Positions 3,180 through 26,632 of a DNA stretch of 64,000 bases are shown here, piece by piece (the first letter of the stretch is position 1; each line of letters starts with the position of its first letter). A model generated the notes under the pieces. That model was given only the letters and a program-made list of their open reading frames with translations, did no database searches and was not told the DNA's origin. Source of the stretch: Eutypella sp. D-1 (lineage: Eukaryota > Ascomycota > Sordariomycetes > Xylariales > Diatrypaceae); the NCBI GenBank assembly GCA_023313575.1, contig JAJTTP010000005.1, positions 1,426,001 to 1,490,000 of the forward strand, in the 5' to 3' direction. Position numbers and translations under genes: made by a program.

Positions 3180-3790
3180 CCTCAGGTATGTCTCCAATCT
3201 TCCGTCAGGAGACACAGCGTCCTGGTAAAATGGTGCGCCCTAAATCCCTCGAGAGCCACACCATCGCTCAGCCGGCCCCCGAACATCACGTGGTAACAGA
3301 TGGTCTTGAATGTATTTGGTAGCGTGGCAATGTACAACTTCACTCTGACCCATGGCCAACTGTCAGTATCTGGACTAGCCGTGCCTCGCCATCTTGGCTC
3401 ATAGCCCGGTACTCCAGACTGAGATCGAGAACAGGCCCGAAGAATCCCCGTGCAGTACAATATGCTTGATGAGGGTTACGGTGGCCCTGTCCAAGTCTCT
3501 TCCCGTGTCCATCTCATCAAGTTCCATAGACAGATACGCCTTCATAGAATTTTGGCCTCTATTTGGAAGCTGAAAAAAAAAGCCCGTGAAATAAGCACTA
3601 TACTTGGCACAAAGTTCTGAAGAAGAACTTCGAATCCCTCACTGGTCACCAAATACTTCGAAGTGAACTGCTTGACCCACCACATATCGAAGTTCATGGC
3701 CTTTGGAATGCGGTATATAGGACTCTCGGACCTAAGTGTGAGTTCTCCAAATCACAGGGATAACTTGCTAGCGTCGCTGTAGCTGGCACT
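3180..3790 (-). pseudogene. DMATS-type aromatic prenyltransferase relic
   Basis: Three ordered minus-strand segments match the layout of fungal indole (dimethylallyl-tryptophan synthase type) prenyltransferases. First, around 3720-3630, is IYRIPKAMNFDMWWVKQF, like the early region between the two N-terminal substrate motifs. Second, around 3548-3470, is MKAYLSMELDEMDTG, like the Lys-x-Tyr ... Thr-Gly motif. Third, around 3350-3260, is RVKLYI ... MFGGRLSDG, like the second Lys-x-Tyr plus Gly-Gly motif. The two lysine motifs are 67 codons apart, close to the roughly 70 of the family. Segments two and three are in different frames. A 66-nt GT..AG interval could be an intron but would remove expected residues. 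There is a stop upstream of segment one, and I found no start or C-terminal half. I read it as a decayed or partial gene. The assignment rests on motif recall, not alignment. Confidence 0.5.
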
Positions 3791-4506
3791 GTTGTCGAAC
3801 AGAGACCCGCTGGCCGCCAAATGCGCCTCCCGCTTTGGACCTGAAGCAGGATAGCTCATGCTTTGGATGATGAAGTCCTCCGAAAAGTAGATATAGACAG
3901 CCTATTGATCCGGGTCAATAAATACAAGACAGGAAACACAATGGATCGTCCGATATGCGCGGCTAATCTGGTCTTGTTTGAACTGCTCGCTAAGAAGGTT
4001 ACGACGTTGTGTTAGCTACATGTACGTCCCTGGTCGATTGCCTGATTAGACAAATGAGGCAAGGCTTCCATAGATAAACCTGACGATGTGACGGTATTCA
4101 TGCCCAAACCCCTTCGGACTCATGTCGTTTCGTATAGACATCCTATGTAGTTCATGATATACCAACATACACCACATGACACTACTATTTTCGGGTTTTC
4201 CTTTCACTACGTAAGGCACCGCACGGAAGAATCATGGCTCTGCGACAGCTCCAAGTTTCGCGTCACAGTTCTTTAGTTAAGGAAATTGGAGCTTAGACAT
4301 ACATGTTTATCTCATAAATCCTCTGCCAGGTACCCTGACGGCACTTCTGAACCTGCTTCATAATTCAGAGGCCGCTGAGCCTAAACCTACGAAAGTCCCG
4401 CGGCAAGTTTGGCCTGCTCTACGCCAAATGTAGGTTGGGACAATTTGCAGTCTAGCAAGATAGGATACCCACTGCCCCATACAATTCTTATTCCGGTCGC
4501 ATTTCT
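3791..4506. other. intergenic / possible decayed 5' part of the prenyltransferase relic
   Basis: No open frame of note occurs on either strand. If the prenyltransferase-like relic once had an N-terminal exon it should lie here, but I could not identify one. Confidence 0.3.
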
Positions 4507-5445
4507 CTAAAAGCTCCAGGTATCATTGTAGGCGAGCAGTTGGTCCTCTTGAAACCGCATCAACCGGTCCCAGTCAATGCAGGAGTGCACCACACCCCAG
4601 CTGAGGCCGTCCTCCCAGTACTCCCTGGGGCTTCCAGGTGGCGAGTCGCTCTCGAGCGTCATGTAGTCCCCACAGGTGATGCTCAGCCTCAGGTACTCGA
4701 AGCAGTGCTCCAGGTGGTCGATCCAGTCCCTATCGATGGGCGTGTCGGCCAGCGGATCTGTGGCACTGGACTCGTAAACCAGTGTATTGTAGCGCATGCG
4801 AATCATGTGCACGCAGTGCAGCTCGTGCATATTGTTCAGCACGTAGAAGTTGCGGAGGTTAGGCAGGCTGGCCACTGCCTCAGGCGGCTCATTGAAGATG
4901 AAGAAGGGAGCCCGGATTCCAGGGTCTTGAAGCCCGAAGGCCGCGGGCTTGTCCAGGTATATAGAGTCCGATGCTGTGGTGAGGATCGCTTGTAAGTAAC
5001 ACTGATTCATACGCTATCACACTAAATAGGCCATACAAGGCATTCGAGTTCTAGGTGAGTGTAGATAAGGCAGACAGAAACACACACCTTCCGTCAACCG
5101 GGCCCAATTTTTGGCAGCTTCTTTCGAAGGCCCCATATACTCGCGGTGTGGAATGAACGGCACGTCTTTACGCTCTGTGAATACTTCACGGGGAATTGGA
5201 TTCAGCGAACTGATACCAAAATCCTGCAAGTTCGATGTGGCCGATCGACCGCCTAGGAATCCAAACAACAGCCCGGTTGTAAGGCACAGGAGCATCACAA
5301 AGATGGAATTGTGCGACACCTTCCGCAGGCTGTCTAAGTATGCCGGCGCAGGATAGGAGTCTCGACTCTCAGTCTCATCATCTTCATCTTCGTATGATGC
5401 CAGAGGGCCATATTCAGATCTTTTGGTTTCTGCCAAGTCCGCCAT
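4507..5445 (-). CDS. UstYa-like (DUF3328) oxidase A
   Basis: Exons 5445-5088 and 4988-4507 join in phase (intron 4989-5087, GTGTGT donor, AAG acceptor) to give 279 residues. A cytoplasmic N-terminus is followed by one membrane helix at about residues 48-70 and a lumenal domain. That domain has the two family motifs: HELHC (H174, H177, C178) and LEHC (H214, C215) with a following CGD. UstYa-type proteins are membrane-anchored enzymes of dikaritin biosynthesis that oxidise or cyclise core peptides, and the His/Cys motifs are thought to hold a metal. The length and the intron position, just after the WxxL element, match the UstYa gene on the far side of the divergent promoter at 5446-6771. The target residue cannot be told from sequence. 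The acceptor is inferred from phase. Confidence 0.88.
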
Positions 5446-6771
5446 AATGTGAACGTCAAGGTACTGTTAAAATGAAGTTGGAACCCGGTGAACGCCTATG
5501 TCAGTCCGGAAAGCAATACATTCAATTAGAAATGTACGATCGATAAAAACCACTGATGAAGCGAACGCTTGATCCACCTAAATTTCGCCAACTTTTTTCC
5601 CGGACGTTTATGCACTCGCGCCATCGGAGGGACTCAGGCGGGCATAACTTAATAAGCACTGACGGCGTGACTACCATGGTCCCGAATACCCACGCCTTTT
5701 CGTACATAGGTATGCCTCATATCTTGCAGATCCCCTCGCAAGTCACCCACTAAGTAAGATATATGGGTCCATCTCGGACTTGAGGAGAAATTCGCATACT
5801 GGATGCAAAAGGAAGATTGAACCTCAAACGTATACAAGAAATGAAGGGGGGTGGACGTAAATATGCAACCCTGGACTAGTGCGGCGCTAATTTAAAACCA
5901 CTAACTTTCGGGATCTACCCGTCCCCACGAGCTTATTCCAGGATAGTGGAGAACTAGAGGGGTGTCTGTAACAAATCCACGGTGACACAGCCCTATGTAA
6001 GACATGTTAACCAGTGGGTCCCATCAAGGGTTAGAAGATCATATAGACGTATACCGTTGTTGGCTTCCGAGGTTGTCGCACCGATCTCTTTATAGGGCAG
6101 ACAGTACTAGGTATTCTCCATCCGTTGGCTGACACAAGCGCACACTCGACCCCGCACCGTAAATGATACTAGGGCCATGGTAACGACAAGCAGGAATATC
6201 AAGGTACACAGTCCCGCTGTACAGCCTGGGAAATAAACAGACGGATCTCGAAGAGCTTTTCCCAATGACCCGTCCGGTTTTTTGGATAGGCGGCCAAGTC
6301 CCGAAGAACCTTGCTCCTTGCTCCCTGTAGGCTGCTGACGTGCTTCGTAGCAGGATGGGATATTCGCTTTTGCATATTGGTCACCAGGTAGTGCTCTTGC
6401 TCTGCTAGATCATTGCAGATCATTGTCTTGCTATTTGTTGGTACCCATGACAAGACTCGATGGGTATCGATCCCGAAGGATGCCCGGAGAGACGGTCATC
6501 AGAGCAGGTTATCCTGCAGAAGGCCACGACACTTGCAAGTAGCGGGGCAAACAAACATTTCTCAGGGATGACACACTACTTGCCGGAATCGGTTCATCCT
6601 TGATTCTTGAACCAACGCCGCTTCTCCCACTGGGTTGCTTGCGTTGATGCCCCCCTCTACACTCTCTCCCCTATGTCATACAACTTTTGAGTAAAAGTCT
6701 TTCTACTTCACTTTTGCGAAAGTTCGTTCGTGGAGGCTCGTAGATAATTTCAGCTAGTTAAGCCCTCCAAG
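5446..6771. promoter_or_regulatory. divergent promoter region between two UstYa-like genes
   Basis: This 1.3 kb of non-coding DNA separates two head-to-head UstYa-like genes, so it must hold both promoters. I could not define a shared binding motif by eye. Small open frames here (for example 6199-6453 minus) have no recognisable features. Confidence 0.5.
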
Positions 6772-7719
6772 ATGCCATTTCCCGAGCCCAAGCATTCAGA
6801 TCCCAAATATGAACCCCTATCTCCTAGCGAGCATGAAGGAGTAGATGATCATGAAAGGCAACCCAGAATACGCCGCGGTTGGCTCAGCTGGAGCTCGGCA
6901 ATGATATGTGTCCTTTCCATGGGATGGCTTGCCACGGTGGTGGCCTGGTATCACAGTCGTTCTATCTCCTCTAATGGACCTCTACACGTCTACACCAACA
7001 CGCCCATCCCCAAAGAGGTTTTCAAGCCCGTCAAGAGGGTGTTTGAGCCAGATGAGAGATATGTGGGCGGGGGTAGCGAGGTCGAAGCAATGTGGGATCA
7101 GTTGGTTGCTGGTGCGTGTACTTCTCTAGATGATACCTTCGTCTGCATCATTCTAAATGCTGACAATGAGCGAAACAGGTCATGACGCGGTTTGGATTGA
7201 GAACCCATCACAATGGGGGCTAGGTGAAGGCATCGTCGCCCCTTACGACCATCCAAATACACCAGTCCCAAAGCCGCAAGATTTTTATGTCATATCTATA
7301 CTGCATCAACTCCATTGTCTCGTATGCAACATTCGTTTCTCTCTGATTACTCACGACGTCCCCTCGTACCTCAGTGATTACTCAAGTCATGCTAACTCCT
7401 GTCAATCGACACTCACACATAGAATATGGTTCGGTTCCAGTATTTCCAGGAGAAGAACCGAGTAGACACATCGACAGACCCCGATGCATTCAAATGGAAG
7501 GTCCACGTTGAGCATTGTTTCGAGTACTTGCGGCAGGGCATCTCGTGTGGTGGGGACCTTATCATCGAGGGAAACAGCCCCATCAAGGTGGGCAAGGGCC
7601 ACGCAACGTCAGTGACGGGCTGGGGAGTCGAGCATGATTGCATCAATTTTGATCTGCTGCGGCAGTTTCAGATCGACCAGGAGGCTAAGTACAACCTTAC
7701 GTGGCAGAATTCCGAGTGA
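6772..7719 (+). CDS. UstYa-like (DUF3328) oxidase B
   Basis: Three exons, 6772-7111, 7179-7321 and 7423-7719, give 259 residues in phase. Intron 2 (7322-7422) has a GCTAAC branch site and a TAG acceptor and interrupts the first motif directly after its cysteine-leucine. The spliced protein has a membrane helix at about residues 42-60, HQLHC (H156, H159, C160) followed by LNMVRFQYF, and VEHC (H192, C193) followed by SCGGD. The first intron sits at the same place as in UstYa-like A, in the same phase, which supports common ancestry. The protein is expected to be a type II membrane protein of the secretory pathway acting on the released peptide. Reaction and target are not deducible. Confidence 0.9.
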
Positions 7720-7935
7720 GTCCGAAGAAAGAAACATGTTATAATACCAAGACTCCCGTGGGGTGGTTATCAGATAGTTGAACCTATAAACCCTCGTTTG
7801 GCTCTACATGCCAGTGAATTCACATCTACACATGTTATTTGGAGTTCTGTTTCCGATCAACCCGCTCTTGCTCAATATTTACAGATGCCATGGAGCCATT
7901 CCCGTAATTCAGTAGTCCCCACCCTATGACATAGC

Positions 7936-8592
7936 CTAAGCAATTGCCTTCTCATCAGGTAGGCCATAGACGCTCAGATCTACACTCATGCCGGGGAGCG
8001 TATATACGGCTCCCGTGATGCCCCCGAAAACCTCCAAGACCCTTTCACCGCGGTCCTCAAAACCAAGACGCTTGAAGACGCCTCTGGAGGGAATGTTCTC
8101 CGGATTGAACAGGCCCAGGACGTCTGAGATGTCTTTCTCACGCTTCACGAACTCTAGCAGTGCTCTCGATGCCTCCGTCGCAATTCCTCGTCGGCAGTAC
8201 TCAGGGAGAACCGCGAACCCAAGATCGGGCGCAGCATAAGCATTCGGTGGTTCACCACGCATCAGTGACACAGTGCCGACAGGGGTGGAGCGGGCGGCGC
8301 GAGCTGGAAACGGAAGCACGCTTTCGTCTTCGCCAATATCATTTTGTCTAGATTTCAGAAGTATCAGGTACGTGCCGTACCCGTTGCGGGCGTGCTCGGC
8401 GCGAAATCGGTCTGCCAGCAGCGCCCGGGCTGCTTCCCGCGTGGTAATGGATGTCGGATTTCCGCCGATAGAGGCGATAAACTCGGCGGTGTTGTATAGT
8501 TGCACCAGAAAATCGCAGTGGGAGTCGTCATCAGGCTGGAAGTAGCATAGATAGAGCCGGTCAGACTCAATGAAGAAATTGGGGTCCGTCAT
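7936..8592 (-). CDS. GNAT-family N-acetyltransferase (RimJ/RimL-like)
   Basis: This single-exon gene encodes 218 residues. The order of elements is that of RimJ/RimL-type GNATs: an N-terminal strand ESDRLYLCYF, a substrate region, GTVSLMRGE, then the acetyl-CoA loop in PEYCRRGIATEASRALLEF (R/Q-x-x-G-x-A type) and a C-terminal NIPSRGVFKRLGF helix. It has no signal peptide or membrane helix, so it should be cytosolic. Such enzymes acetylate amino groups of proteins, peptides or small molecules. It lies 217 bases from the 3' end of UstYa-like B, tail to tail, in the middle of the cluster. A role in N-acetylating the trimmed peptide, or in self-protection, is possible, but a cytosolic enzyme would not meet a lumenal intermediate. 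It could equally be a passenger. Confidence 0.85.
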   Translation of the reverse strand: MTDPNFFIESDRLYLCYFQPDDDSHCDFLVQLYNTAEFIASIGGNPTSITTREAARALLADRFRAEHARNGYGTYLILLKSRQNDIGEDESVLPFPARAARSTPVGTVSLMRGEPPNAYAAPDLGFAVLPEYCRRGIATEASRALLEFVKREKDISDVLGLFNPENIPSRGVFKRLGFEDRGERVLEVFGGITGAVYTLPGMSVDLSVYGLPDEKAIA

Positions 8593-9889
8593 ATTGGTTA
8601 TTTGAATCTAAGAAAATATGAGGAATGATGGTTCTAGCCTTCACTCTACAGGATCACTTCAAGAATTGAATCTGGTGATATTGCCTGATCACCGAGGAAC
8701 ACAGAATCAATAAAAGGAAGCCTAACTCTCACGTCTATAGGTCGAAGATAGTATGTGGGAGAATCGTAGATTGGCATAAAAGGAGAAGGCCGAGCTTCTA
8801 GTTACAGAACGGGGGTGCCCTGGGCCTATATATACCCTGCCGATCGCCGGAGATACGGCTCACGTGATCGCCTATATCCGATTTTCCCTTTTAAAATACC
8901 CCTATTCTAAGTGAGGCTCAACTGGCCGTGATACTAACAAAGGAACAAGGAAATGTCAACAGAACAGGAAGGGGGCGCGGTAATAGGGCGTTTTGGATGC
9001 GAGAGGCCCATGAAACCCCTAGGCAGCCAACCCTCCTTTCTGAAACAGGCAACAGTACAGAAGTACTTATAACACCTACCTGTTTGGGATGCCTTCTCCT
9101 ACCTTTTTGATTGATTCTGGCATCGTTTACAATTCCTGTATGCCGGGACGGCAATTACAGAAAGGGGGGGATAGTTAGTTGTCAGGATTTGCATCCATTC
9201 CCCTATACCCCTTTCTTCTCCATACATATTAGAGTTAGACACTAGTACAAAGAGTACTTACGCCTACGGCCACCTCATGTAGACAATCTAGGACAAGCGT
9301 GTGTTCCTTTGTCGACCAACCCCTATACTGAGAGATTGTCCCTGACTATCCGCGCCCACGATCGTGACAACTTTTTCCTAAACTATTAATGGGATAAGAA
9401 GCCTGCGCTTTTATGCACTTGGTGGGAATTCTAACGTGATCGCTCCCCTCACAGCTGTACCCCACCTACAAACTGAGACCCACAATTGCTACGCATATAG
9501 AGAGTGCAGCCCACTTACTGAATATAGATTGACCTACGTAGACAATCACTATTACTTCCCAGTTTACGAACTTAATACTCAACGCAGAAGCTGTTGAATA
9601 ACTACTTGAATTTCGCTACGTGACCTTCAAGAAGTATCCATGGCTAACAACCAATTTTGGTATTACAGTTTTATTTAGCTGCTAGCTGGGGCGAAGTCAA
9701 CTCCATCGGGATCCCCTGATAAAGAATATCTAGGTGCCGAAAGTTTGTTCTCAATTCCACCTAAAAATGAAGAGATGAACAATCTGGTGTTATTTAACTA
9801 GTATTTCAATCAGGTTTAGATTGGAAGTCTGTATCGCAATCTAGAATTTTGGCAAAAGCGGATCTTGTTGGCAAGCTATCAACGGTAAA
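8593..9889. other. intergenic
   Basis: The GNAT promoter is here, with a CACGTGA element near 8861. The 3' flank of UstYa-like C is also here. No other coding signal was seen. Confidence 0.4.
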
Positions 9890-10807: not shown

Positions 10808-11581
10808 ACTTGATGATAATCTGGATAGAGGGTTGAAAGTTGATAGAGTAAAGAAGTAGTAAACCGGTCGCTGAATAGTTTTTTCGCTTCTCAATTGTCT
10901 TGTACGAGACGAAGAACCTCTGACTACCAGATCGCCCAACTCATACCATAGCCCCCCTATACAACGGTACAAGACAATTGTCTGAACAGAACTACATTCT
11001 CACCGTAAGCTCAATAAAGGCGGCAATTATCTAGGAGTCACAAATATGCATGTCTCTCCGATTCGGCCATCTGCTTAAGGACTGGATACAAGAGATACAC
11101 CGCATCAGAAAGGGGTGGGCATAGAATGTTACCTCGATAAGGCTGGCCACGCAGTCCACCATGCATTAGGCCATGCGTCAGGACATGCATTAGTGGGGGT
11201 TGGATGTGGGATCCCTGCATGACTCCACCAGCCATCATGTCAGGGTGGGATAACTATCCCGAAGCTGACGTCAAAAGCCAGGGGGTAAGATTAGAGGGCA
11301 CGAGGAGTGTGCATATTATGAAAGGGGTGAGAAGGAAGGCGAGAAGACAACATGTGGAGCGACATATGAATGCGAATACCAACATGGTGGCAAGAGGCAA
11401 GTCATGTCGATTGCACGAAACCTAGAACCAGATTCTTATACCCAATATGTCCGAGGCAAGCGCGATAATCCTATCAATCTTTACTTTATCTTAGTCGAGT
11501 CAGCTCAAAGCCAGAACCCACGCAGATATTGCGGAAGATTTCAATCTAGACTTCATTTCTATTCCCTCAAGATAGACCATC
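10808..11581. promoter_or_regulatory. divergent promoter, UstYa-like C / 2OG oxygenase
   Basis: This non-coding stretch lies between two head-to-head cluster genes. It includes direct GTCAGGACATGCATTAG-like and GCATTAGGCC words near 11160-11200. I saw no clear palindrome shared with the other cluster promoter. Confidence 0.45.
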
Positions 11582-14779: not shown

Positions 14780-15526
14780 ATGAAGACCACGTCCATGACC
14801 ATTGCAGCCATGCTGCTTCCTTTCCTCGCTGCCGGTGCGGCCGTCAGGCGTAACGAAGCGGCGGCGGCGGAGCCCGCCTACGTCTGGGCTTCCCCCAAGA
14901 GCGCGGAAAAGCGTGCTGAGGCCGAACCTGCTTACGTCTGGGCGTCAAGCGTCAACGCGAAGCGGGCCGAAGCCGAAGCCGAAGCCGAGGCTGCTCCTGC
15001 CTACGTTTGGGCATCGAGCGGGAAACGTTCCGATGCTCAAGCCGATGCCGCACCTGCTTATGTTTGGGCGTCCAGCGGAAAACGATCTGAAGCCCAAGCC
15101 GACGCTGCGCCAGCTTACGTCTGGGCGTCTAGCGGCAAGAGAAGCGAGGCTGAGACCGAAGCCGCCCCTGCCTACGTCTGGGCCTCCAGTGGCAAACGAA
15201 GCGAAGCTGAGACTGATGCTGCGCCAGCCTATGTTTGGGCATCTAGCGGCAAGCGAAGTGAGGCAGAGGCCGAGGCCGCACCTGCCTACGTCTGGGCATC
15301 TAATGGGAAACGATCTGATGCTCAAGCTGATGCGGCACCCGCTTACGTTTGGGCTTCTCCCAAGTCCCCTAAAGACAAGCGTGGAACGGCCGAACCTGCC
15401 TATGTCTGGGCGTCTCCCAAGAGCACTAACGCCTCGCCGGGGCCCAAGTCGGCGGAGAAGCGTGCCGAAGCCGAAGCCGAGGCTGCACCTGCCTACGTTT
15501 GGGCTTCTCCCAAGAAAGCCGAGTGA
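14780..15526 (+). CDS. repeat RiPP precursor (dikaritin-type), PAYVWAS core
   Basis: This single exon encodes 248 residues. A signal peptide (about residues 1-22, MLLPFLAAGA core) leads into 11 copies of PAYVWAS whose prolines are at 32, 50, 73, 92, 111, 130, 149, 168, 187, 206 and 237. Ten Lys-Arg sites separate them (44/45, 61/62, 82/83, 101/102, 120/121, 139/140, 158/159, 177/178, 200/201, 227/228). Each unit opens with Ala/Glu/Asp dipeptides such as AEAEAEAAP, a Ste13-type trimming spacer, and ends SSGKR, SNGKR or a longer PKS..KR follower. This is the UstA-type plan, and the surrounding UstYa-like genes make a dikaritin peptide much more likely than a pheromone. The Tyr-Val start of the core is like phomopsin-type cores. 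The Trp at core position 3 is distinctive. Confidence 0.9.
   Translation: MKTTSMTIAAMLLPFLAAGAAVRRNEAAAAEPAYVWASPKSAEKRAEAEPAYVWASSVNAKRAEAEAEAEAAPAYVWASSGKRSDAQADAAPAYVWASSGKRSEAQADAAPAYVWASSGKRSEAETEAAPAYVWASSGKRSEAETDAAPAYVWASSGKRSEAEAEAAPAYVWASNGKRSDAQADAAPAYVWASPKSPKDKRGTAEPAYVWASPKSTNASPGPKSAEKRAEAEAEAAPAYVWASPKKAE
14873..15508 (+). repeat. in-gene tandem repeats, central unit 57 bp
   Basis: From the third to the tenth core the spacing is exactly 19 codons, eight cores in register. The first, second and last units are longer or shorter. Copies differ mainly at synonymous sites and in the Ser/Asp/Glu/Gln/Thr spacer residues, while Tyr-Val-Trp-Ala-Ser never changes. Confidence 0.95.
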
Positions 15527-16395
15527 AGTATTGCCAAATCACGTCAACGGACGGGATTGCTATAAACCAAAATGGTTGTTGGTGGTTATGGGCTAGCTGG
15601 ATTATGTCTAAGTGGTATGGATTATCGGGTGATTGAAGACTGGACACGCCGCGCCGTAGGCAATACAACTCTCGTTTACACACTCCTGCTATATCTGCGT
15701 AGCATCGTCCGTGCTCTTTTTCTGTGGCGATTGTTAACTGCGACGCACTAGGTTCGCTCCGTTCCTGAAGTGCGACTCAGCCAGGTGCCTTTTGCGGCCA
15801 TCAATTGGTCAAAGAACTAGAACTGTAACCCCCCACCCCCCACCCTCTCCTCTTCAGCAAGCCAGCTGGCAGTATCCACCGTATCTTATACCATGATACA
15901 TATCAGGATGTAGTAGTCATTTTGTTATACCATATCATTTACTATTTTCGTCTGCTTCTCCTACCGAAAGAGCTCGTACTGGGCCGTGAAAACGCGATCA
16001 GCGAAAAGCGCTACCAATATGGATCTTTGATTCGTAAAGGCAATGCCTACGGGTGTCAGCCAGCGTAGTATTGCATAGCCAGATTGCATGCAGCTATAAT
16101 CTAGACCTTACCCAGCATTTAATTAAATGAGCAACGGTGCCATTAGAGCAACAGGAACGACCCAGGACCTAATCAAGAGACGGTCAGGCGGCAACATGGA
16201 ACCCCTAGAAGCATTCTATTTGCACGCCCTTTACCCATGTCAACAGGCACTAAATACGGTTAAGCTCAAGCTTAATTCTCATCCTACCATTCCCCCGCAT
16301 TTGGCTAAATACAGCAGGTAATAAAAGCTTATTTGATTTTAGCTTTTGTGTCGTTTCATTACCGGCACCCTTATATGTTACTAAGCGGAAAGTTT
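15527..16395. other. precursor 3' flank and intergenic DNA
   Basis: A cytosine-rich run lies near 15827-15845, followed by AT-rich sequence. The frame at 16127-16321 has no family features. Confidence 0.35.
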
Positions 16396-16990
16396 AACTC
16401 GTAGGCTTGCTCGCCTACCTTTCGGACGACGGTTAATGGTCCGATACGCTGCTAAGACCATTTCCGTAGTGGGCATCCTGGAAGATGATAACCTTTATGT
16501 AGCTTTAAGTAAGCGGTATCTCCGATATTAAACTCGAGCGGTGTATGTTTTTTATTATAACGTATTTTGGTATCCGCCGCTGTAAAGTCGGCCGCTACCT
16601 CGGTATCGTGCTGGTGCAATTGCCGTAAGGTGTTAAAATCGTATATAGTTGTCGTCTTGGGCACGTCGAGGATGGATATAGGCGATAACGGCTTAAAACT
16701 TAAAACTACCTTATTGGGCGACCGGCTTAAAACGTTTACGTAGGCATTGTTTAGGTTGTGCTGTAAAGCTAAGATACGTTAATCCAGGGTTCGTCCGATA
16801 AAAGGGCATGGTACCGCAGTGCTGTCTCGACGTTTTGGTTCCGTCGTTCAGCCTGGCCGTTTAACTGTGGGTGAAACGCCGTCGTAAAGCTAAGTTTTAT
16901 GCTTAGATGGCAAAACAGCGCCCTCCCTTTGCTAAATATTTTACCCTTGGGTTCGATCATATCGATTTACCCTATTTCGCATTTTACAAG
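16396..16990 (-). mobile_element. Ty3/gypsy integrase relic
   Basis: Minus-strand pieces read as the end of a gypsy polyprotein: TTAFHPQLNGQAERRNQNVE (integrase core signature), then a linker, then NKKHTPLEFNIGDTAYLKLH (the post-integrase segment of chromoviral elements). Several in-frame stops and no reverse transcriptase, gag or LTRs show it is a dead fragment of about 600 bp. AT-rich substitutions would fit repeat-induced mutation, but I cannot test that here. Confidence 0.8.
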
Positions 16991-17686
16991 TCAGATTTAC
17001 ATCCCACATCTTTAGTTACATGGTGTCTCTTCTTACGGTACATAATCGCCACGGCTCGTCTGTAGGGAAACTCCATCGCCGTTGGCCTACAAGACGTAGC
17101 CAGTCAGCCGTCGAACCTGTATAAGTTTCTTGCATACCGGCCAATCGATTCACCATGTCTCAAGCGAGCGGTGTATCATGAGGCGTTCATCATTCTCGCC
17201 GACCATACTAGAACTCGGATTCTATATCCGTGATGCGACGCTAAATAAGCCCTGCTGTCGGTTTATATTTCTGAGTAGGTAAGCAGCGCAGCCGCCACAC
17301 GTCTTGTCACAAATCAAAAACTCGGAATCTGTGGTGGGGACCCTTAAAACTTCAAGCGACATAATGTGGTTTTCAGTCCCCTAAATGCACCCCCTGCTGC
17401 ATGTCTTGTTTCTCATGGCTGTGTGTGACTACCTTGGGGCGAATACATGCTACGTGTGCGTGGCTTATCTGCACTTCTTGAACTTTAGAAAAGGCCGGTG
17501 AACAATGATGCCAAAGGAGACACTCACCGCCGCGCCGATCATGGTTCATGATAGGGATTGAAGTCGGCCCCCGGCTTTACCTCCTAATGTTGAAGACCCG
17601 CTGAGTCGTCAATGTCTACTCCTTCTCGGTGCTATCGTAGCCAACCGTCTCTCAGTCTCCCTATCACTATTCTCGGTTAAACCATT
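16991..17686. other. intergenic, possibly further transposon debris
   Basis: No supportable coding sequence was found. The part next to the integrase relic is AT-rich. The promoter of the DOMON/b561 gene is at the right end. Confidence 0.35.
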
Positions 17687-19240
17687 ATGGCTGGGCTTGT
17701 GTTCTTCATCAGTCTGATATGTCTTCTGCTCGCAGTATCGCACAGTCTAGCGCAGGCATCGCTGCAATATTGCCACGGGAGCCCAAATACGCCGGGTGGT
17801 CTCTGCGTGGTTGTTGAGGCATGGCAGAACACCACCGCCTCTTCTACAGATCTAATCGCCACCTTTGGCCATCAAAGATACGCACGCGATACCGGATGGA
17901 CGGCTTTCGGCCTCGGAAATGGCATGGTCGGGGCACTGATGTTTATAGCCTATGCAGCGGAAGGCAACAGTTCGTTCACATATCAAGTAATGTATAGAGA
18001 TATCTCTAGAGAGCTGACCCCACGACTCTATCTCTTCATCTAGTCCCAGTATTAAGCCTACGTTGCGGAAGGTCAGTTATATCCCCAGCTCTTTTATGAT
18101 GCGTAAGCTTAGCAACAAGTGCGCTATTAGGGGACACTTTGAACCGAAAGCCGGCGGGGCCATGCCGGAAATATCTGTTTTTGACATGACGATAAACAGC
18201 AGCAACTGGTTTGAAGCAAGCTTCACTTGCTTCGGGTGCATCGAAATAGATCTTGACGATAATGGACATAGCTTGCAGTCGTTCATCTGGGCCACTAACT
18301 CCGGCGGCGTAATCGAATCTGCATCAGAAGATGCAAAGCTCGAATTACACGACTCTTCTGGCCATTTCTCTTTCGACGTAGCAAAAGCCCTAAGCCACGG
18401 GAGCAGGCCCACTACTGGTCCAGCGATTGACTTCTCCGTACCTAATGAGGATGCCCGAATTGAGAACGAGGGGAATTCTCACGGGCATTCACATTCGCAC
18501 TCCCACTCTCATGACCATTCACACTCGCATTCGCTAGCTGTGCCCCTACATGGGATTTTCATGACAATAGCCGTTGCAGCATTATACCCCGCTGGGGCAA
18601 TGGCTATCAGGAGTGGGTCGAAAAGGGCCTTTCAGTTACACGTTGGAGTCCAAGCAATAGCGTCAATGCTGAGCTTCCTTGGTGTAATACTCGGTGGTAT
18701 TGCGATAGCATCGGACGTATGGGTAGGAAGAGACCTCCTGGTTCGTAGGCAGCCTTCATTCGTCCATGATGTCTAACAAAATCTCTGTCTATAGGGTCAC
18801 GTCACGCAGCCGCACGTTTTGCTAGGGATAGCGCTCATAGTTATGATTACGATCCAGATCTTTTTAGGGTACCGTCATCACATAGGCTACAAACAGATGC
18901 AATCAACTCTCAAAACCACAAGAAGTCACATCTATCTCGGGCGCTTGATCATACTGGGTGGATGTGCCAATGTCTTTCTGTAAGCTTGAATATTCTACCT
19001 ACCGAACTATTGAAGCAGGTAGTTATATGTACTAACCGCTCCGGTCTTTATAGGGGCCTGAGGTTAGCCGGCGCTCCAAACCTCGTTGTCATTGCTGCAG
19101 CATCTATAGGATTTGTCGATCTTCTGATCGTGGCAGGTATGACATACTTGCAGAGGAAGCAGCGTAAAGCAGAATCTGTAGGCCCTGCTGGAAAAGAAGA
19201 TATGGCTCCATTCTTAGGTGGTAGCAGTGAGGACGCCTGA
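17687..19240 (+). CDS. DOMON / cytochrome b561 transmembrane electron-transfer protein
   Basis: I built four exons: 17687-17991, 18044-18716, 18795-18979 and 19054-19240. The sum is 1350 nt, giving 449 residues in phase. A signal peptide (about 1-23) is followed by a DOMON-like heme domain (GWTAFGLGNGM at 70-80, then IWATNSGG). Next is a histidine-rich stretch at 248-264 (alternating Ser-His with one Asp) and a b561-type membrane domain. That domain has LHGIFM (H272), FQLHVG (H301), PHVLLG (about H333) and SHIYLG (about H364), the four heme-ligand histidines of a two-heme b561 core. Such proteins carry electrons from cytosolic ascorbate across a membrane to the DOMON heme. Placed beside the precursor, it could feed lumenal metal enzymes of the cluster. 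Exon 2's start depends on a donor chosen for phase. Confidence 0.87.
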
Positions 19241-20351
19241 TAGTGCATGCTCTACGGCTAATTAGAAATGGTAATAAGAAGCCATGGTCCCGCTATTTAC
19301 ACATCTTCCCGATTTCATTATGTATATCCTGCCACGAGTTGTACCTTGGGCATTTGTAGCAACGGATAGTCGAATCGACTCTGCCATACGCAAAAGCTGG
19401 GGGCTTTGATGAAGGATAACGCGATTTACCTATCTAGAACAATAGACATAAGCGGTTCGGCAACCTCTAGTCCACACGATGGGCAAGGACACAATCATGA
19501 TTCAGACAAAACACATCGACGTTTATTCAGCCAAGCCACCCACACAGGCTTCAGAACTTACCTGCATGTTTGAAACCTACCCTATCATCAACGCCGTTCT
19601 AAGGCTCAATGCTACATTCAGCGGCTGGGTGTATACCTATCAACCTCGCAGCTTCACCACCCTGATCACAACCACCAGAGGTCCCATGGCGTATCAGTCC
19701 ATTCTCGGACAGCAGCATCCCCGCCATCATGCATATGCAGGGCTGACATGCTTTGGCTTTCTAAAACATGGATGCACGACATGAGGGAAAGGGGTGACTA
19801 TATTGACGGCAGCGGGGTAAAGCCATGTCTAAAATGTGCATTGAATTGGTGATATCTCGGAGCAACCTTTGTATACCGTACCCCTCGTCACGACTATACG
19901 GAGAATTATTTCGTCATGGTCACGCAGAGCTTCTCTAGTGAGACAATTCATCCCTCTTTCACCAAGCGCTAGTTGTAAGTGGCCAACATGTTGTCCAGTC
20001 GATCCGGTAGATTACTCCCACCCCTTCGTCAGGCTCAGCCGATGGTCTCACGGTATCCCGCCCTCACAGCTACTTCTCGGTTCTCAAGAGCTATACCATT
20101 AGTTTCGACACCCATATTCTTCGGTTGAAGTTAGAGCAAAGTGCTAGGTAGCACTCGATGATTCCCCTGCGCTGAAATTCGTCGTAGGTAAGACCAAAAA
20201 CACTCGACTTTGATCATACTGTTACCAAGTTCAATCCAACGAGTAAGAACAGCACAGAGTCAGTTGATTCTTCACCCAAAGGTGGTATTTCCCACTGTTG
20301 GCGCCCTCCACGCGAACGCCCTTGGGCTGTCCATTGGAAATCAGCTAATTC
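19241..20351. other. intergenic
   Basis: This is non-coding as far as I can see. A 101-codon frame at 19479-19784 has no recognisable features and unconvincing composition. Confidence 0.35.
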
Positions 20352-21104
20352 ATGACGTTTAGCGACCCGAGAGTGAAGCTTCATCGGATCTCCCCAATGG
20401 AGGATGAGGAGGAACAGCTCCTTGAAGCCTTCAGTGGAAGCAAGAAACCGTCTGAGGCCGGCGGTCTCCATAGGGCATTGAGGTGGTATTTTGCATCCCC
20501 CTGGGTGATGCTAAAGGATGTTGTCCTGTTCTGTTTTGCAGTGCCTGGATTCGTTGCGCTCATAAACCCATCGATGGCATATGGCCACCAGGAGCCACCA
20601 CATTCGTAAGGGGACAGTTCTAGCCAGGAGGGCACCATGCTAACCGGACGGAGGACGACAACACCTTTGGGTACCTGTAACTGCGGTGATTCAGTGCGAG
20701 AAGCGAAGGCAATGGGATGTCACTTCGATATCCTCGCCGCCGCATGGTTGCCAGAGAAATGTCTGGATGAAGAGCTGACGGCCGAGTTCGAGCTATCCGG
20801 GGACGGCCCGGACGGCTCCTGGCAGTACTGGCTGGATTTGAATCACACCCAGGAGATATCCGTCGATGCACTGGGCGACCATGCCGACGACCCGGACTTC
20901 CGCTTTTATTCTACCACACAATGGCACGTGACGCACTGCCTCTTCTACTGGCGCAAGCAGCAGCGTGCCCGGGGCATCGGCGGCCCCATCGTTGAGCCTC
21001 GTTACGACACGGAACAGCACATCAACCATTGCAGCGGCTTCATCAGGGAGGGCAGGGATGGAGGTGTTCAAGCCGGGGTTGCGCTGGCTTCAGACTACCT
21101 ATGA
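20352..21104 (+). CDS. divergent UstYa-like protein D (CxCG/GCHFD subgroup)
   Basis: Exons 20352-20605 and 20654-21104 give 234 residues. The 48-nt intron has a CTAAC branch close to its GAG acceptor; it is needed because an in-frame TAA stands at 20607. The protein has an N-terminal cytosolic segment, a membrane helix at about residues 53-73, then TCNCG, GCHFDILAAAWLP, FYSTTQWHVTHC (H176, H179, C180) and QHINHC (H210, C211). This is a separate fungal subgroup of single-pass proteins with an HxxHC plus NHC pair, which I class with UstYa-like proteins on those motifs and topology. The start could be 20352 or the Met at 20397 (MEDEEE). If the intron is not real, the gene is broken by a nonsense codon. 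Confidence 0.75.
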
Positions 21105-21754
21105 GTTGACAAACGAGCAAAGAGAAATCGCATTGAATATTATGGTGGTTTGTTGATATTGAGGACTTCCGCTGCTTCCTCCGGGACTCGATAGGAGGGT
21201 GAGTGATCTCATTGCCAACCCATCGTGAAGGATCCACTAGAGCTCCTATAGGTTAAGCTCAGGCCATCTTTGGCGCCTGGAAATAGGGGAAACATACATA
21301 CTAAGTAGAGATCTAACAAACTATTACTTCAGTAGGGGCTTAGCACTAACTAAAAGCGGCCCGAGAAGCACCTAAACTGTACACCTAGGCAGGGTTTAGG
21401 GAGTAAGGGTCAGCTGACAAGGCGCGAACATAGCGCGAAAGAGCGCGACAAGACGGCAGGGCCGGCATGAACTTGCCCAGGTGTCCATCGGCCCATCTAC
21501 ATCATCTCACTTTGTCCATCGTTGGAATGAGAGACGCGCAAGCGATTTACTTTAAACCAATGAAATAAGTGATGTTTGAATTTGATGACTGAGACTGACT
21601 ACTACCCAGCTACCTACTGTCATAAATCTACATTTACCCATACGCACCGCTGTAGTGATCACGTAACTCTACAGCACAGAACTCTGATAATTGTACCGAA
21701 ACGCCACAATTTAGCCCTGAAGGTTGTTTTACATCACTGCAAGTGTGATTCGCC
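21105..21754. other. intergenic
   Basis: Promoter region of the FAD oxidoreductase gene. No gene was found. Confidence 0.4.
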
Positions 21755-23287
21755 ATGTCTTCCGAGAAGCTCTTCGAGGAGCACCATGCTGCCGTCAAAC
21801 GCATACAGGACCAAGTCAAGTACTTTTATGATAACAAGAAGCACTTCAGAGTCTACCATGGCTCCACTTCCTCGACGCGCCCGTTGTCCTTTCAGCGCGA
21901 TTCCATTGTCGACACCAGCGACATGGACCGCTTGTTCCCCGTGGATCTCGAGACCATGACAGTCAAGGCAGAACCCAAGGTAAGTTGGTCGATTAGAGGC
22001 GTTTATGCGATGCTCGTCCCTGCGGCTAACCATCTCCAGGTCCCGATGGATGCACTTGCGGCCCACACCCTGAAGCACGGGGTTGTTCCAAAGATCGTTA
22101 TGGAGTTCAAGGGCATCACTTGTGGTGGGGGCTATTCCGGCTTTTCCGCCGAGAGTTCCATGTTCCGCTACGGTTTGTTTAACAATACCGTCTCCGATAT
22201 TGAGATCGTGCTCGGCGACGGCACCCTCGAGATGGCGAGCCGCACGCATAATGCCGACCTTCTCGAGCATGCTGCCGGAAGCCTCGGCACTTTCGGCATC
22301 GTCACGCTCCTCACCATTGAGCTCATCCCCGCGAAGCCATTCGTGCAAGTGGATATACAGCTCGTCGGGGATGTCGACACGGCGCACGCAATTTTTGAGG
22401 AAGCCACTAAGGACGAGTCTATCCACTTCATCGAGGGTGTGTACTTCCGCAAGGGCTGCATCGTGGTCATGCTCTCGCGATTCATCGACGCGCCGCCGCC
22501 GAGTAAGAAGGCCCTCAAGAAGATGCAGGTGCACTGGTTCGCCGACACGATCGAGAACGTTCTTGTCAAGGAGAAGCCCACCCCCGAGAAGCCACATCCG
22601 ATCTACATGACTACGACCGACTACCTGTTCCGCTACGACCACGGCGCCTTCTGGGGAGGTAAGCTCGCGTTCCAACACTTCCACGTGCCGGAGAACGCGC
22701 TCACTCGGCGGTTGGCCGATCCCTTCATGGACAGCCGAACCTGCTACCATGCGCTGCACAAGTCTGGGCTCGCGAACGAGTACGTGGTGCAGGACTTCGG
22801 AATCCCCGCGAGCACGGTGTCACAGTTCGTCGCATTCGTCAATGAAACACTGCCCGAGCTGCAGATCTTCCTGGCGCCGTGCCGAACGGCGCGTGAGGTC
22901 GGTTTGGCGTCGCGCTTCAACCCGCGCGTCGCCGAGGTGCAGGACCAGCGCATCTTCGCCGTCGGCGTCTACGGCCGCGGGCCCCGCGATCCGACCGCTT
23001 TCCGCGAACTCAACCGCAAGCTCGAGCTCCGCAGCTCCGAGTTGCTCGGCGCCAAGCTGCTTTACGCCCGCACCTACTACAGCGAGGAGGAGTTTTGGAC
23101 CATCTACAACAAGGAGATCTACGATGAGATGCGCAAGAAATACCGCGCCGATACCTTACCATCGGTCTACGACAAGCTCAAGGCAGACATGAACACCGGC
23201 GCGGGCAAGAGGAGGCCCGTCCGCGGCATCGTGGAGACAATGTGGGACAAGCTAGTGGGAAATAAAGAATACCTACTCAAGAAATAA
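21755..23287 (+). CDS. FAD-linked oxidoreductase, DHCR24/DIMINUTO-like
   Basis: Exons 21755-21979 and 22040-23287 give 490 residues. The 60-nt intron (GTAAGT..CAG with a GCTAAC branch) has no stop, so it could be misread as coding. The FAD-binding (PCMH-type) half shows the GGGYSGFSAESS loop and LEHAAGSLGTFGIVT, the usual segments of the delta-24 sterol reductase-like branch. The C-terminal half has FWTIYNKEIYDEMRKKY and LPSVYDKL, also typical of that branch. Sterol reductases of this type need NADPH and a membrane anchor. No N-terminal helix is visible, so it may be soluble. In this position it could reduce or oxidise a C-C bond in the peptide product, but cytosolic location would be a difficulty, and a sterol or lipid role remains possible. 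Confidence 0.85.
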   Translation: MSSEKLFEEHHAAVKRIQDQVKYFYDNKKHFRVYHGSTSSTRPLSFQRDSIVDTSDMDRLFPVDLETMTVKAEPKVSWSIRGVYAMLVPAANHLQVPMDALAAHTLKHGVVPKIVMEFKGITCGGGYSGFSAESSMFRYGLFNNTVSDIEIVLGDGTLEMASRTHNADLLEHAAGSLGTFGIVTLLTIELIPAKPFVQVDIQLVGDVDTAHAIFEEATKDESIHFIEGVYFRKGCIVVMLSRFIDAPPPSKKALKKMQVHWFADTIENVLVKEKPTPEKPHPIYMTTTDYLFRYDHGAFWGGKLAFQHFHVPENALTRRLADPFMDSRTCYHALHKSGLANEYVVQDFGIPASTVSQFVAFVNETLPELQIFLAPCRTAREVGLASRFNPRVAEVQDQRIFAVGVYGRGPRDPTAFRELNRKLELRSSELLGAKLLYARTYYSEEEFWTIYNKEIYDEMRKKYRADTLPSVYDKLKADMNTGAGKRRPVRGIVETMWDKLVGNKEYLLKK

Positions 23288-24018
23288 CCTCCGCGAAAGG
23301 ATGGTCCGCTAGGGAAAGCCGAGCATAGATTAATAGTTAATGTGTATATACCCGTACTCGGACATCGAGTAATTAATGCACGGTTATCTCAAAGCTGGTG
23401 CGCGTCTACTTCAATAGACCGTCTTGCATAGATGCATTGTTCTTAATCTTCTGAGTTGCAAGACTAAGCCAATTGTCATTTACTACTATTCTTCTGAATT
23501 CATGACCACCAACACTGAATAGAAGATTTTCCTATCTCGACGATACGCAATCTGCGATTGATGGTAAGGAAATCGTAATGGCGCCATCCGGTGGGTATCG
23601 ACTTTGACAACGCGAGAAGATGTTCGATATAGTCGCCTTTGCGGGCCACGAAAAACCAAACATATCATTTCTTATCACCAAAGTTTGAGAGCCGCCTGTC
23701 GGCATATTTCCAAACCACGAATACTGTAGTGAAACCAACATTCAAAGTATCTCTCATAAGGTCCGACATCTACATTACTCGCCAACACCCTAAGTTAATG
23801 GTCATTGACCAAGTGATACATACCATTGATGAGAAAGCGGAGCTTCTTGACGTAGGCGGAAGTTAAACAAAGTCTAGAAAGCCCCCTCCGTTGGTGTCAA
23901 GATAATTAAGCGTAGTGCTAGCAAAGAGCATAAATAAGTTGGTATAGTGTTTAGGATACGCCGCGTGAATCCCCCACATTCTCCTCCCTTATTTTCTGTA
24001 TCTTCATAAAGGGCTACT
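23288..24018. other. intergenic
   Basis: Promoter of the amine oxidase gene, with a TATA-like CATAAATAAG near 23929. Open frames on both strands here lack features. Confidence 0.4.
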
Positions 24019-26632
24019 ATGTACAATCATCTTCTGGTTCTTTGCCTGGTAATCCAAGCCTCAACTACTCTTGCATCGTACCTACCAGTCAATCTTGAGA
24101 CTCGTTCTGAGCTCAACTCAAGGTTGACGAACGTTCACGTTTCTTTCGAACGACCTATAAAAGACAGCATCACATACACATATGGCGCTTGTGACGACCT
24201 ACGTCGTCACGATGCTCACCATGCCATCGGTCACAGTGCTGAGGCTAAAGACCTGCGCCTGGTATGGGTCCTTCCTGGGGACATGATGTCCGGCGGGTGT
24301 GTACATGCGTGGGACTCGCGGGATTCTTTGGTCGGCCGCAGCGAACCCCAGTTCCTGCAGAAGAAGAATTTAAGGAGGCGGGGACCATACAAGGTCCAGA
24401 TGGCGAACGAAACAAGCATCGACGCTTTGGGGCCTTGGTTCAATGGCGTTGCGCTGCTTCAGGGCAAGAACCTGAGCGTCGTTGACGTGGAGGCGGCCAA
24501 GTCTAAGGATATTGCCATCGTCGGCGCTGGGGCTGCGGGCTTGATGACCTATTTGGTCCTTCACCAAGCCGGGTTAACAAAGCTGAGTATCATCGAGGCG
24601 AGTCAGCGCCTTGGTGGCAGGATTCACACGGCTTACCTCTCCGGCGGCCCATTTGATTATTCCTACCAGGAATTGGGCCCTATGAGGCTCCCGGAGACGG
24701 TCATGTACTCTAATGTGACGTACAACATTACTGAGCACCAGCTGGTGGGTAATAGAGCCGCCTTCACGCATTCCAGAATGAGTTGCCATCTCACGCGAGG
24801 CTCCTCCACACTGACTCATCCAACGCACATAGGTGTTTCAATTGGCCAACGAGATGAACAGGCTTAATAACCACGACAAGAACTTCTCCGTCGATTTCAT
24901 TCCGTGGTTTCAGTCGAGCCCGAATGGCCTCGTGTACAAGGACGGCTTCAAGCTAGATAGCGGTCTGCCACCCACCGTGTCTCAGGTGGCTGAGAACAAC
25001 TATTTCCCAGATTCAGACACGACGAGTCTATCGTACGAAGCCCTCTCCAATGAAGTGAATACTTTCCTCACAAACGAGACATTCCTCCTGGAGGTCACAC
25101 AGAATGTGTTCAAGGCGCACAGAGACTGGATAGGTAAATTCTATTTGTGCACCCAAAGCCCACAATGAGCGCGACATTCCTTGACGTTCCCTGCCTGCCT
25201 AGATTATGGATTGAAGGGACTGGGTGGCGACACTTGGTCAGAGTTCGCGTACATGGTCCAGAACCTCAACGCAAGCATGGAAGACGCGTTTGCGCTAGAT
25301 TCGAGCTTCATGCTAAGTACGACTGATTGGTCGTTCTGGAGCGAGGTAAGTCGTCCTCTCAAGTGAATATCCTCAATCGCTAATACGAGAACTGAAATAG
25401 TTGTACGTTGGCGCATATTTCAAAGCGACGACTTGGAAGACGATCGATGGTGGTACGTTGACCTGCTAGCGATGATAACCCCTACATATATTGACAGTGG
25501 GACAGGGATGAGTCGCCTTCCCCTTTCTTTCCATCCCTTGGTCGATAACGTGACATCCATGAACCGAAAGATAGAGCGGGTGCAATTTAATGAGACGTCT
25601 GAGAGAGTGAACCTGCAGTGGAAGAAAAGCCGCACAGACCGAGGCTTCCAAAACGCCTCATACGACTACGCTATCATTGCCCTTCCATTCTCCATGGTCA
25701 AGCGAATTAAGCTTCCAGGTAAGCCTTCACACCCCAATCGCTTAGCCTCAGCCCTTACTTCATCCTTATTTTTACCCGTTTACGATTATGATACTGACAT
25801 CCCCAATCGCAGCGCTCCCTGAGGGCATCTCACAGGCGATCCAGAACGTACCATTCGGGTCGTCGTGCAAGGTGGCGCTGGAGTACCGGACGCGGTTCTG
25901 GGAACGGTTCGAGAACCCGATATATGGAGGCTGCTCAACAACGACGGACGCACCAGGGATCGGGTACGTGTGCTACCCATCGTACTGCCTAAACTGCACC
26001 GGGCCGGCGACCCTGATCGCATCGTACAGCATCCGCGACTGGGGCGATAACTGGGTCTCGGTGCTCGAGGAGGACCACGTGCGCTACGTCGTTGACGCCA
26101 TGGTCGACATCCACGGCCAGGTCGCCCGCGACGAGTACACTGGTAAATACGTCCGTCGCTGTTGGCGCCTCGACGAGTACGAGGCGGGATCGTGGGCCTC
26201 GCCCACTATCGGCATGCACCAGGCCTACATCCCGGAGTACTTCAAGACTTACAGAAACGTATGTACACAACTTCACCCTACCTATGTACAGCTTTTTTAA
26301 CCAGCATGGTCGGCTGATCCCTTCGGCCCCAGATGATCTTCGTCGGCGAGCAAACATCCTGTACCCACGGCTGGATCGCGTCGGCCCTCGAGTCCGGCAT
26401 CCGCGGCGGGGTCCAGTTGCTTCTAGGTGCGGCACCCGCAACGTTAAAGCGCACGATGCAGGATATTGACGTACGACATACAGAACTTGGTCTGGTAGAT
26501 GAAGCAAAGGCCGCTGTGGACAAGTGGATGGCGCGTTGGATAGAAGTCGTGAGTCCCGACCCTAGGCGCAAGTTTCCGATTTTGCATGATATGGTATGCC
26601 GTCTAACTAGTGATTCAAGTGATGCGTGGTAA
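24019..26632 (+). CDS. secreted flavin amine oxidase (L-amino-acid-oxidase-like)
   Basis: Seven exons: 24019-24744, 24833-25133, 25203-25345, 25401-25452, 25506-25718, 25813-26258 and 26333-26632. They sum to 2181 nt, giving 726 residues. A signal peptide (LLVLCLVIQASTTLAS) precedes about 150 residues, then the FAD Rossmann motif IVGAGAAGLMTYL, EASQRLGGRIHT and QELGPMRLP. The C-terminal FAD contact is VGEQTSCTHGWIASALESG. This is the L-amino-acid-oxidase type of flavin monoamine oxidase, which turns an alpha-amine into an imine and then a keto group, releasing H2O2. Several N-x-S/T sites fit secretion. As the last gene of the cluster, it could deaminate the free amino terminus of the trimmed peptide. 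A general secreted L-amino acid oxidase is the alternative. Confidence 0.87.

What the first reader, a model, noticed from the sequence alone, without database searches (positions are those of the whole stretch)
3180..26632. Candidate undescribed dikaritin-type RiPP cluster with a YVWAS core
A secreted 11-repeat Kex2-processed precursor is flanked by four UstYa-like proteins plus a 2OG oxygenase, a DOMON/b561 protein, two flavoproteins and a GNAT. The precursor architecture and UstYa neighbours are established marks of dikaritin pathways. The core and the partner set do not match the ustiloxin, phomopsin, asperipin, epichloecyclin or victorin sets as I know them. The product would be a modified Tyr-Val-Trp-Ala-Ser peptide.
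Basis: partly seen in the sequence, partly recalled or inferred. Interest (0 to 1): 0.95.

Follow-up and report, generated by a model that had tools for sequence, protein, structure and literature searches.

The report
Fungal ribosomal peptide cluster, new core
A fungus carries an uncharacterised gene cluster that appears to cut eleven copies of one short peptide out of a secreted protein and modify them with copper enzymes, beside a membrane electron carrier that could be the missing power supply for such enzymes.

Summary
Window 14780-15526 encodes a secreted 248-aa precursor with eleven identical PAYVWAS units; ten follow a KR site. Inside the core synonymous codon changes are common (194 of 385 codon pairs) and amino-acid changes absent (0 of 385); both flanks vary. 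Within 22 kb lie three Pfam-verified UstYa genes, a fourth UstYa-like gene supported only by its double HxxHC motif, a P4H-type oxygenase, a CDH-cytochrome/b561 membrane protein, two flavoproteins and a GNAT. Best reading: a dikaritin-type RiPP cluster whose Trp sits where ustiloxin and phomopsin cores have the cross-linked Ile. It lacks their tyrosinase and S41 peptidase. One relative with the same core was found, in a metagenome. The kind is known: 1758 such precursors with UstYa neighbours are catalogued. Less ordinary: a UstYa-family enzyme was shown in 2025 to be a binuclear copper enzyme needing an electron donor not yet identified, and this cluster encodes a plausible one. That role, the product and expression are untested. 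The fourth UstYa-like frame has an in-frame stop, so the cluster may be partly disabled.

The parts
14780..15526 (+). precursor gene: signal peptide plus 11 PAYVWAS units, 10 KR (Kex2-type) sites
   Evidence: no Pfam
14873..15508 (+). core array, first P codon to last S codon (YVWAS starts 14879, 14933, 15002, 15059, 15116, 15173, 15230, 15287, 15344, 15401, 15494)
4507..5445 (-). UstYa family protein UYa, 279 aa, one predicted intron; HELHC...HLEHC; N-terminal TM
   Evidence: PF11807 76.5 bits
6772..7719 (+). UstYa family protein UYb, 259 aa, two predicted introns; HQLHC...HVEHC
   Evidence: PF11807 114.2 bits
9890..10807 (-). UstYa family protein UYc, 281 aa, one predicted intron; HQLHC...HRDHC
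   Evidence: PF11807 115.2 bits
20352..21104 (+). divergent UstYa-like protein UYd; HVTHC...HINHC; one in-frame stop near 20608 (short intron or disrupted allele); the start could also be a later ATG
   Evidence: no Pfam hit; hhalign aligns both HxxHC with UYa-c, E 0.0019 but probability only 14%; relatives P0002-P0008
11582..12581 (+). 2OG/Fe(II) oxygenase, prolyl-4-hydroxylase type, N-terminal hydrophobic segment
   Evidence: PF13640; PDB 2jig prolyl-4 hydroxylase E 5.9e-14
17687..19240 (+). CDH-type cytochrome (DOMON) domain + His-rich linker + cytochrome b561; candidate electron donor
   Evidence: PF16010 54.1 bits, PF03188 23.7 bits; four b561 His shared with a paralogue
21755..23287 (+). 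FAD_binding_4 (VAO/cytokinin-oxidase type) oxidoreductase, no N-terminal hydrophobic segment
24019..26632 (+). secreted flavin amine oxidase, L-amino-acid-oxidase type, 726 aa, six predicted introns
   Evidence: PF01593; PDB LAAOs, best E 1.8e-37; model
7936..8592 (-). GNAT acetyltransferase (Acetyltransf_3), no N-terminal hydrophobic segment; membership of the pathway uncertain
3107..3475 (-). weak tryptophan dimethylallyltransferase-like stretch, probably a remnant
   Evidence: PF11991 E 6e-4, 19.7 bits (one of six pieces) and 20.8 bits, E 0.004, one stop, both below cut-off 25; not above shuffles pairwise

Best explanation
It is a dikaritin-type RiPP cluster. The precursor enters the secretory pathway, Kex2 cuts after KR, and exopeptidases trim the acidic linker. 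Membrane-anchored copper UstYa enzymes then oxidise and cross-link the PAYVWAS core in the lumen; the likeliest bond joins Tyr to Trp at i+2, where ustiloxin and phomopsin join Tyr to Ile. The P4H-type oxygenase probably hydroxylates the core, Pro being one candidate, and the secreted amino-acid oxidase may oxidise the freed N-terminus. The CDH-cytochrome/b561 protein probably carries electrons across the membrane to the copper or iron enzymes. Shown: genes, families, motifs, core conservation. Inferred: every reaction, the order, the electron-donor role.
For: Core under strong constraint: 0 amino-acid and 194 synonymous differences in 385 codon pairs; 187 of 385 and 99 of 165 non-synonymous differences in the left and right flanks. 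A metagenomic homologue keeps the signal/leader and APA[YF]VWAS three times. Three UstYa genes over cut-off; hydrophobic N-terminal segment plus double HxxHC in all four UstYa-like models. Eight of ten predicted proteins have an N-terminal hydrophobic segment, which suggests a secretory-pathway location. UstYa/DUF3328 CctR is binuclear-copper, O2-dependent, needs electron input, and its authors posit an accessory protein for electron transfer or Cu(I) delivery (PMC12435403, whole text). CDH passes electrons through its cytochrome domain to LPMO, its physiological partner (PMC10278072 abstract; that LPMOs are copper enzymes is recalled). Tyr-Ile cross-link and YxI cores: PMC7329392 passages.
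Against: No expression or metabolite data. No tyrosinase or S41 peptidase, and no methyltransferase or transporter among the gene models scanned. UYd has an in-frame stop. A Ty3/gypsy remnant separates the precursor from the CDH-cyt/b561, UYd, FAD and oxidase genes, so the right half may be a separate module. CDH-cyt matches lie near 1 of 11 UstYa loci in this genome. The b561 match is barely over its cut-off, is not among the five that the genome-wide PF03188 search listed, and no solved cytochrome matches the protein by sequence. One of three cores in P0001 has Phe for Tyr. No shared promoter motif above the null.
Confidence: 0.75

Rival explanations
1. The cluster is real but decaying: UYd and a prenyltransferase-like gene are broken and a retroelement has landed in it, so this strain makes a truncated product or none.
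For: In-frame stop in UYd where relative P0002 reads on; a 48-nt intron there would have an unusual acceptor (read from the sequence); weak DMATS-like stretch with a stop; Ty3/gypsy integrase remnant at 16251-17000.
Against: The models of the precursor, UYa-c, P4H, CDH-cyt/b561, FAD and amine oxidase are complete; the core shows no amino-acid change in 11 copies; a 48-nt intron would remove the UYd stop in frame.
Confidence: 0.2
2. Two neighbouring modules: a left dikaritin cluster (UYa-c, GNAT, P4H, precursor) and an unrelated right group (CDH-cyt/b561, UYd, FAD, amine oxidase).
For: The retroelement remnant lies between them; the right group's enzyme types are not, as recalled, part of the characterised dikaritin sets; CDH-cyt is near only 1 of 11 UstYa loci.
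Against: UYd with its double HxxHC sits in the right group; CDH-cyt/b561, UYd and amine oxidase have N-terminal hydrophobic segments like the left-group enzymes except the GNAT.
Confidence: 0.3
3. An unmodified secreted repeat peptide (pheromone-like or signalling KEP) that happens to lie near UstYa genes.
For: Most KEPs (6120 of 7878) lack UstYa neighbours (PMC7329392 section 7); a Ste13-like dipeptide pattern precedes the core, as in alpha-factor-type processing (recalled).
Against: Three UstYa genes within 10.3 kb to the left of the precursor and UYd within 5.6 kb to its right; 21 UstYa matches, which I group into 11 loci in 48.5 Mb, make chance clustering unlikely.
Confidence: 0.06

Closest known systems
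Ustiloxin and phomopsin clusters (dikaritins, YxI core)
   Same: Signal peptide, KR-separated repeats, UstYa homologues, Tyr and a bulky residue at i+2
   Different: Trp instead of Ile at i+2; PA precedes Tyr; no tyrosinase and no S41 peptidase; P4H, CDH-cyt/b561 and amino-acid oxidase present
Asperipin-2a cluster
   Same: Repeat precursor and UstYa homologue without tyrosinase (four genes, PMC6514808 passages)
   Different: One UstYa homologue, an isoflavone reductase and a transporter there; four UstYa-like genes and other oxidoreductases here; core FYYTGY there
CctR / ApnU / AprY, DUF3328 copper enzymes
   Same: N-terminal TM segment and HxxHC(x)nHxxHC (paper on CctR; window)
   Different: The CctR paper posits but does not identify an accessory donor; a candidate is clustered here
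Other Kex2-repeat + UstYa loci of the same genome (L034, L038)
   Same: KEP-like ORFs QYSPAALRIAE and NPDYIYTDVDAIE type, about 1.5 kb from a UstYa match
   Different: Other cores; no CDH-cyt match on C5 or C13

Membership tests
dikaritin pathway (broad: KEP precursor + UstYa homologue) | secreted precursor with repeats separated by Kex2 sites | tested here: met
   11 cores, 10 KR, N-terminal hydrophobic segment
dikaritin pathway (broad: KEP precursor + UstYa homologue) | UstYa/DUF3328 homologues next to the precursor | tested here: met
   three PF11807 hits over cut-off; fourth by motif only
dikaritin pathway (broad: KEP precursor + UstYa homologue) | core cyclised by UstYa | not testable with these tools
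   needs mass spectrometry
phomopsin-type dikaritin (conserved set named in PMC6514808 passages) | tyrosinase in the cluster | tested here: not met
   20 PF00264 matches in the genome, none on contig C45
phomopsin-type dikaritin (conserved set named in PMC6514808 passages) | S41 peptidase in the cluster | tested here: not met
   one PF03572 match, on contig C3
phomopsin-type dikaritin (conserved set named in PMC6514808 passages) | zinc-finger regulator in the cluster | tested here: inconclusive
   none among the gene models from 4.5 to 26.6 kb; a Zn2Cys6 ORF starts at 54694; no genome search was made
ustiloxin/phomopsin-type core | YxI core | tested here: not met
   YVW in 11 of 11 repeats
UstYa family (for UYd) | PF11807 match | tested here: not met
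   one of 8 family members matches, at E 0.062
UstYa family (for UYd) | HxxHC(x)nHxxHC after an N-terminal TM helix, each motif in a helix | tested here: inconclusive
   motif and hydrophobic segment present; model of relative P0002 puts both motifs in helices, mean pLDDT 60.4, second motif helix mostly under 50
cytochrome b561 electron carrier (17687-19240) | four haem-ligand histidines in TM helices | tested here: met
   H271, H301, H335, H373 align with a paralogue; that these are the ligands is recalled; Pfam score only 0.7 bits over cut-off

The most novel reading that the evidence does not exclude
A RiPP cluster that carries its own lumenal power supply: a CDH-type haem domain on a b561 membrane channel, with a His-rich loop, reduces the copper pairs of several UstYa enzymes, which make a Tyr-Trp (i to i+2) cross-linked, hydroxylated peptide from PAYVWAS. 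This would be the accessory electron-transfer protein that the CctR authors postulated.
Probability: 0.2. Interest if true: 0.75.

Novelty: new variant of a known kind. Interest (0 to 1): 0.5.

Why it matters
Few dikaritins are characterised (five by a 2022 review) against 1758 catalogued precursors with UstYa neighbours. A Tyr-Trp pair in the cross-link position would extend UstYa chemistry to an indole. More importantly, how copper UstYa enzymes get electrons in the oxidising lumen is an open question put in print in 2025; a clustered membrane haem protein gives a concrete, testable candidate.

Tried and rejected
Shared promoter motif across ten upstream regions: best k-mer sharing lies inside the null from 200 random draws. 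PDB relatives of the UstYa proteins: none by UYc alone (best E 0.46, an unrelated protein) or by a three-sequence profile. The CDH-cyt/b561 protein found no cytochrome in the PDB, only a weak match (E 0.022) that runs into its His-rich part. Naming UYd by Pfam failed for it and its seven relatives. The DMATS reading of 3107-3475: profile support only and below cut-off; five neighbouring pieces gave no family at E up to 1; tblastn with the genome's two intact DMATS gives 20.8 bits against 23.9 for the best of 40 shuffles, so it is not counted as a cluster enzyme. A wider search for the precursor: only P0001 at E under 1e-3 (only the 7990 candidates sharing most words were scored) and nothing beyond itself from P0001 (259 candidates). 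Literature: no paper in the library holds YVWAS, PAYVWA or AYVWAS; asperigimycin, recalled as a fungal RiPP with a joined indole and phenol, gives no paper, so it could not be compared; benzofuranoindoline gives two papers, one opened, where the passage is a reference to a bacterial peptide. Among the 30 of 36 papers listed only PMC10668714, not opened, counts both DOMON and a dikaritin term; among the 11 of 12 listed none counts both DUF3328 and cytochrome b561. PMC12048977 (outline), PMC9233826 (passages) and PMC7099791 (passages) were opened and not used.
Full report
WHAT IS THERE. The window is G000:C45:1426001-1490000 of a 48.5 Mb, 72-contig assembly. Predicted introns, a HET-domain gene and UstYa genes mark it as a filamentous ascomycete (inference). 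The best-scoring named UYd relative, 60% identical, is from Xylariaceae sp. FL1651; the species of the window was not identified. The precursor ORF 14780-15526 has no predicted intron and no Pfam family. It holds eleven YVWAS and ten KR.

THE CORE. Aligned on Tyr, positions -2 to +4 (PAYVWAS) are identical in 11 of 11 copies although their codons differ: 194 of 385 codon pairs differ synonymously, 0 non-synonymously. In the seven codons to the left 187 of 385 pairs differ non-synonymously, and in the three to the right 99 of 165. Position -4 is Ala in 11 of 11 too. So selection acts on PAYVWAS, and the flanks behave as spacers. After each KR stands one small residue (S, A or G), then dipeptides ending in Ala or Pro, then A-YVWAS; 8 of 10 KR-preceded units fit throughout and 2 have one Glu-Thr dipeptide. 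That is what a Ste13-like dipeptidyl aminopeptidase would trim, provided the first residue is removed; inference. A passage in PMC6339444 says that STE13 is not predicted to process ustiloxin and phomopsin precursors, so this would be a difference. The only homologue found is P0001, a 136-aa JGI metagenome protein with a like signal/leader and APAYVWASSGK, APAFVWASSGRK and APAYVWASGG; KR does not separate its repeats, and one core has Phe for Tyr.

THE UstYa PROTEINS. UYa, UYb and UYc pass PF11807 with 76.5, 114.2 and 115.2 bits. Each has an N-terminal hydrophobic segment and two HxxHC motifs 23 to 32 residues apart. UYd has the same layout (26 residues between the motifs) but no Pfam match. 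hhalign pairs its two motifs with those of UYa-c (E 0.0019, but probability 14%), and one of eight family members reaches PF11807, at E 0.062. An AlphaFold2 model of its relative P0002 shows a long N-terminal helix and both motifs in helices, with mean pLDDT 60.4 and the second motif helix mostly under 50. I call it UstYa-like, not UstYa. Its frame has one in-frame stop near 20608; P0002 (96% identical over the alignment; 90% over 94% of the query by BLASTP) is uninterrupted there. Either a 48-nt intron with an unusual acceptor is spliced, or this allele is disrupted; intact copies exist in relatives.

OTHER GENES. The 2OG oxygenase matches prolyl 4-hydroxylases and keeps HxD and a distal His (read from the sequence; motif recalled). 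The 17687-19240 protein has an N-terminal hydrophobic segment, a CDH-cyt domain, a linker HGHSHSHSHSHDHSHSHS and a b561 domain whose H271, H301, H335 and H373 align with those of a paralogue on contig C7. Its b561 score is only just over the cut-off (23.7 against 23), the genome-wide search for that family did not list it, and no PDB cytochrome matches by sequence. The amine oxidase is a complete 726-aa model with an N-terminal hydrophobic segment, closest to L-amino-acid oxidases. The FAD protein is of VAO/cytokinin-oxidase type and, like the GNAT, has no N-terminal hydrophobic segment, so these two would act in the cytosol or not at all in this pathway. A HET gene bounds the left side. Two overlapping ORFs at 27198-27872 on the right were not searched.

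GENOME CONTEXT. PF11807 gives 21 matches, which I group into 11 loci. Twenty stretches, from all ten other loci and the window's left neighbour, together with the window gave three repeat precursors by a simple filter: the window's, a QYSPAALRIAE type on C13 and a NPDYIYTDVDAIE type on C5; a fourth flagged ORF was low-complexity. The filter covered about 10 to 30 kb per locus and single ORFs only, so misses are possible. So this fungus has at least three such loci, and this one is not exceptional in kind. Of 11 PF16010 matches, only the window's lies near a UstYa locus; the next on the same contig is about 100 kb away. Tyrosinase: 20 matches, none on this contig. S41 peptidase: one, elsewhere. 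A Kex2-type P_proprotein domain matches once.

MECHANISM. Shown in print: UstYa homologues are needed for cyclising ustiloxin, phomopsin and asperipin-2a, with Tyr-Ile linkage in YxI cores (PMC7329392, passages and section 7). CctR of the same family is a membrane-associated binuclear copper enzyme, proposed to lie in the lumen, that uses O2, needs electron input and is helped by ascorbate, NADH or NADPH in vitro; the authors hypothesise an accessory protein for electron transfer or Cu(I) delivery (PMC12435403, whole text). CDH passes electrons to LPMO, its physiological partner (PMC10278072 abstract). Inference: the clustered CDH-cyt/b561 protein fills that role here, directly or by keeping lumenal ascorbate reduced, which would also serve the P4H-type oxygenase. 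That animal b561 proteins feed vesicular copper monooxygenases is recalled. Against: only one of 11 UstYa loci here has such a neighbour, a retroelement remnant (TAFHPQLNGQAERRNQNVE) separates it from the precursor, and no functional data exist.

KNOWN OR NEW. In 1461 fungal strains 7878 KEPs were counted, 1758 with UstYa neighbours; in Ascomycota about 5.3 KEPs per strain, 30.1% with such neighbours, so one or two dikaritin-like loci per ascomycete are expected. What differs is the core and the partner set. No paper in the open-access library holds the core in its text; supplements and subscription papers were not searched. A survey of 14 Hypoxylaceae/Xylaria genomes reports a ustiloxin-like RiPP cluster in some species (PMC8403587 passages) without giving cores in the passages seen. 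Verdict: a sound, mostly ordinary genome-mining hit with one testable, non-ordinary feature.

Noticed in passing
window 20352-21104: UYd frame interrupted by an in-frame stop near 20608 while relative P0002 is uninterrupted; short intron or disrupted allele.
   Followed up: partly
window 3107-3475 (-): Weak tryptophan-dimethylallyltransferase-like stretch at the left end of the cluster, with a stop; possibly a remnant of a prenyltransferase that could have acted on the Trp of the core.
   Followed up: partly
window 16251-17000 (-): Ty3/gypsy integrase remnant between precursor and CDH-cyt/b561 gene.
   Followed up: partly
L034 4763-5059 (-) and L038 8187-8756 (+): Two further Kex2-repeat-like precursors (QYSPAALRIAE type; NPDYIYTDVDAIE type) about 1.5 kb from UstYa matches in the same genome.
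   Followed up: partly
P0001: Metagenomic precursor relative with the same core but without KR between repeats and with one Tyr-to-Phe core.
   Followed up: partly
G000:C23:1218308-1227320: A flavin amine oxidase match lies about 7 kb from another UstYa match; possible second UstYa/amine-oxidase pairing.
   Followed up: no
G000:C12:2684794-2692694: Tyrosinase matches lie about 7 kb from a UstYa match, a pairing like that of ustiloxin and phomopsin clusters.
   Followed up: no
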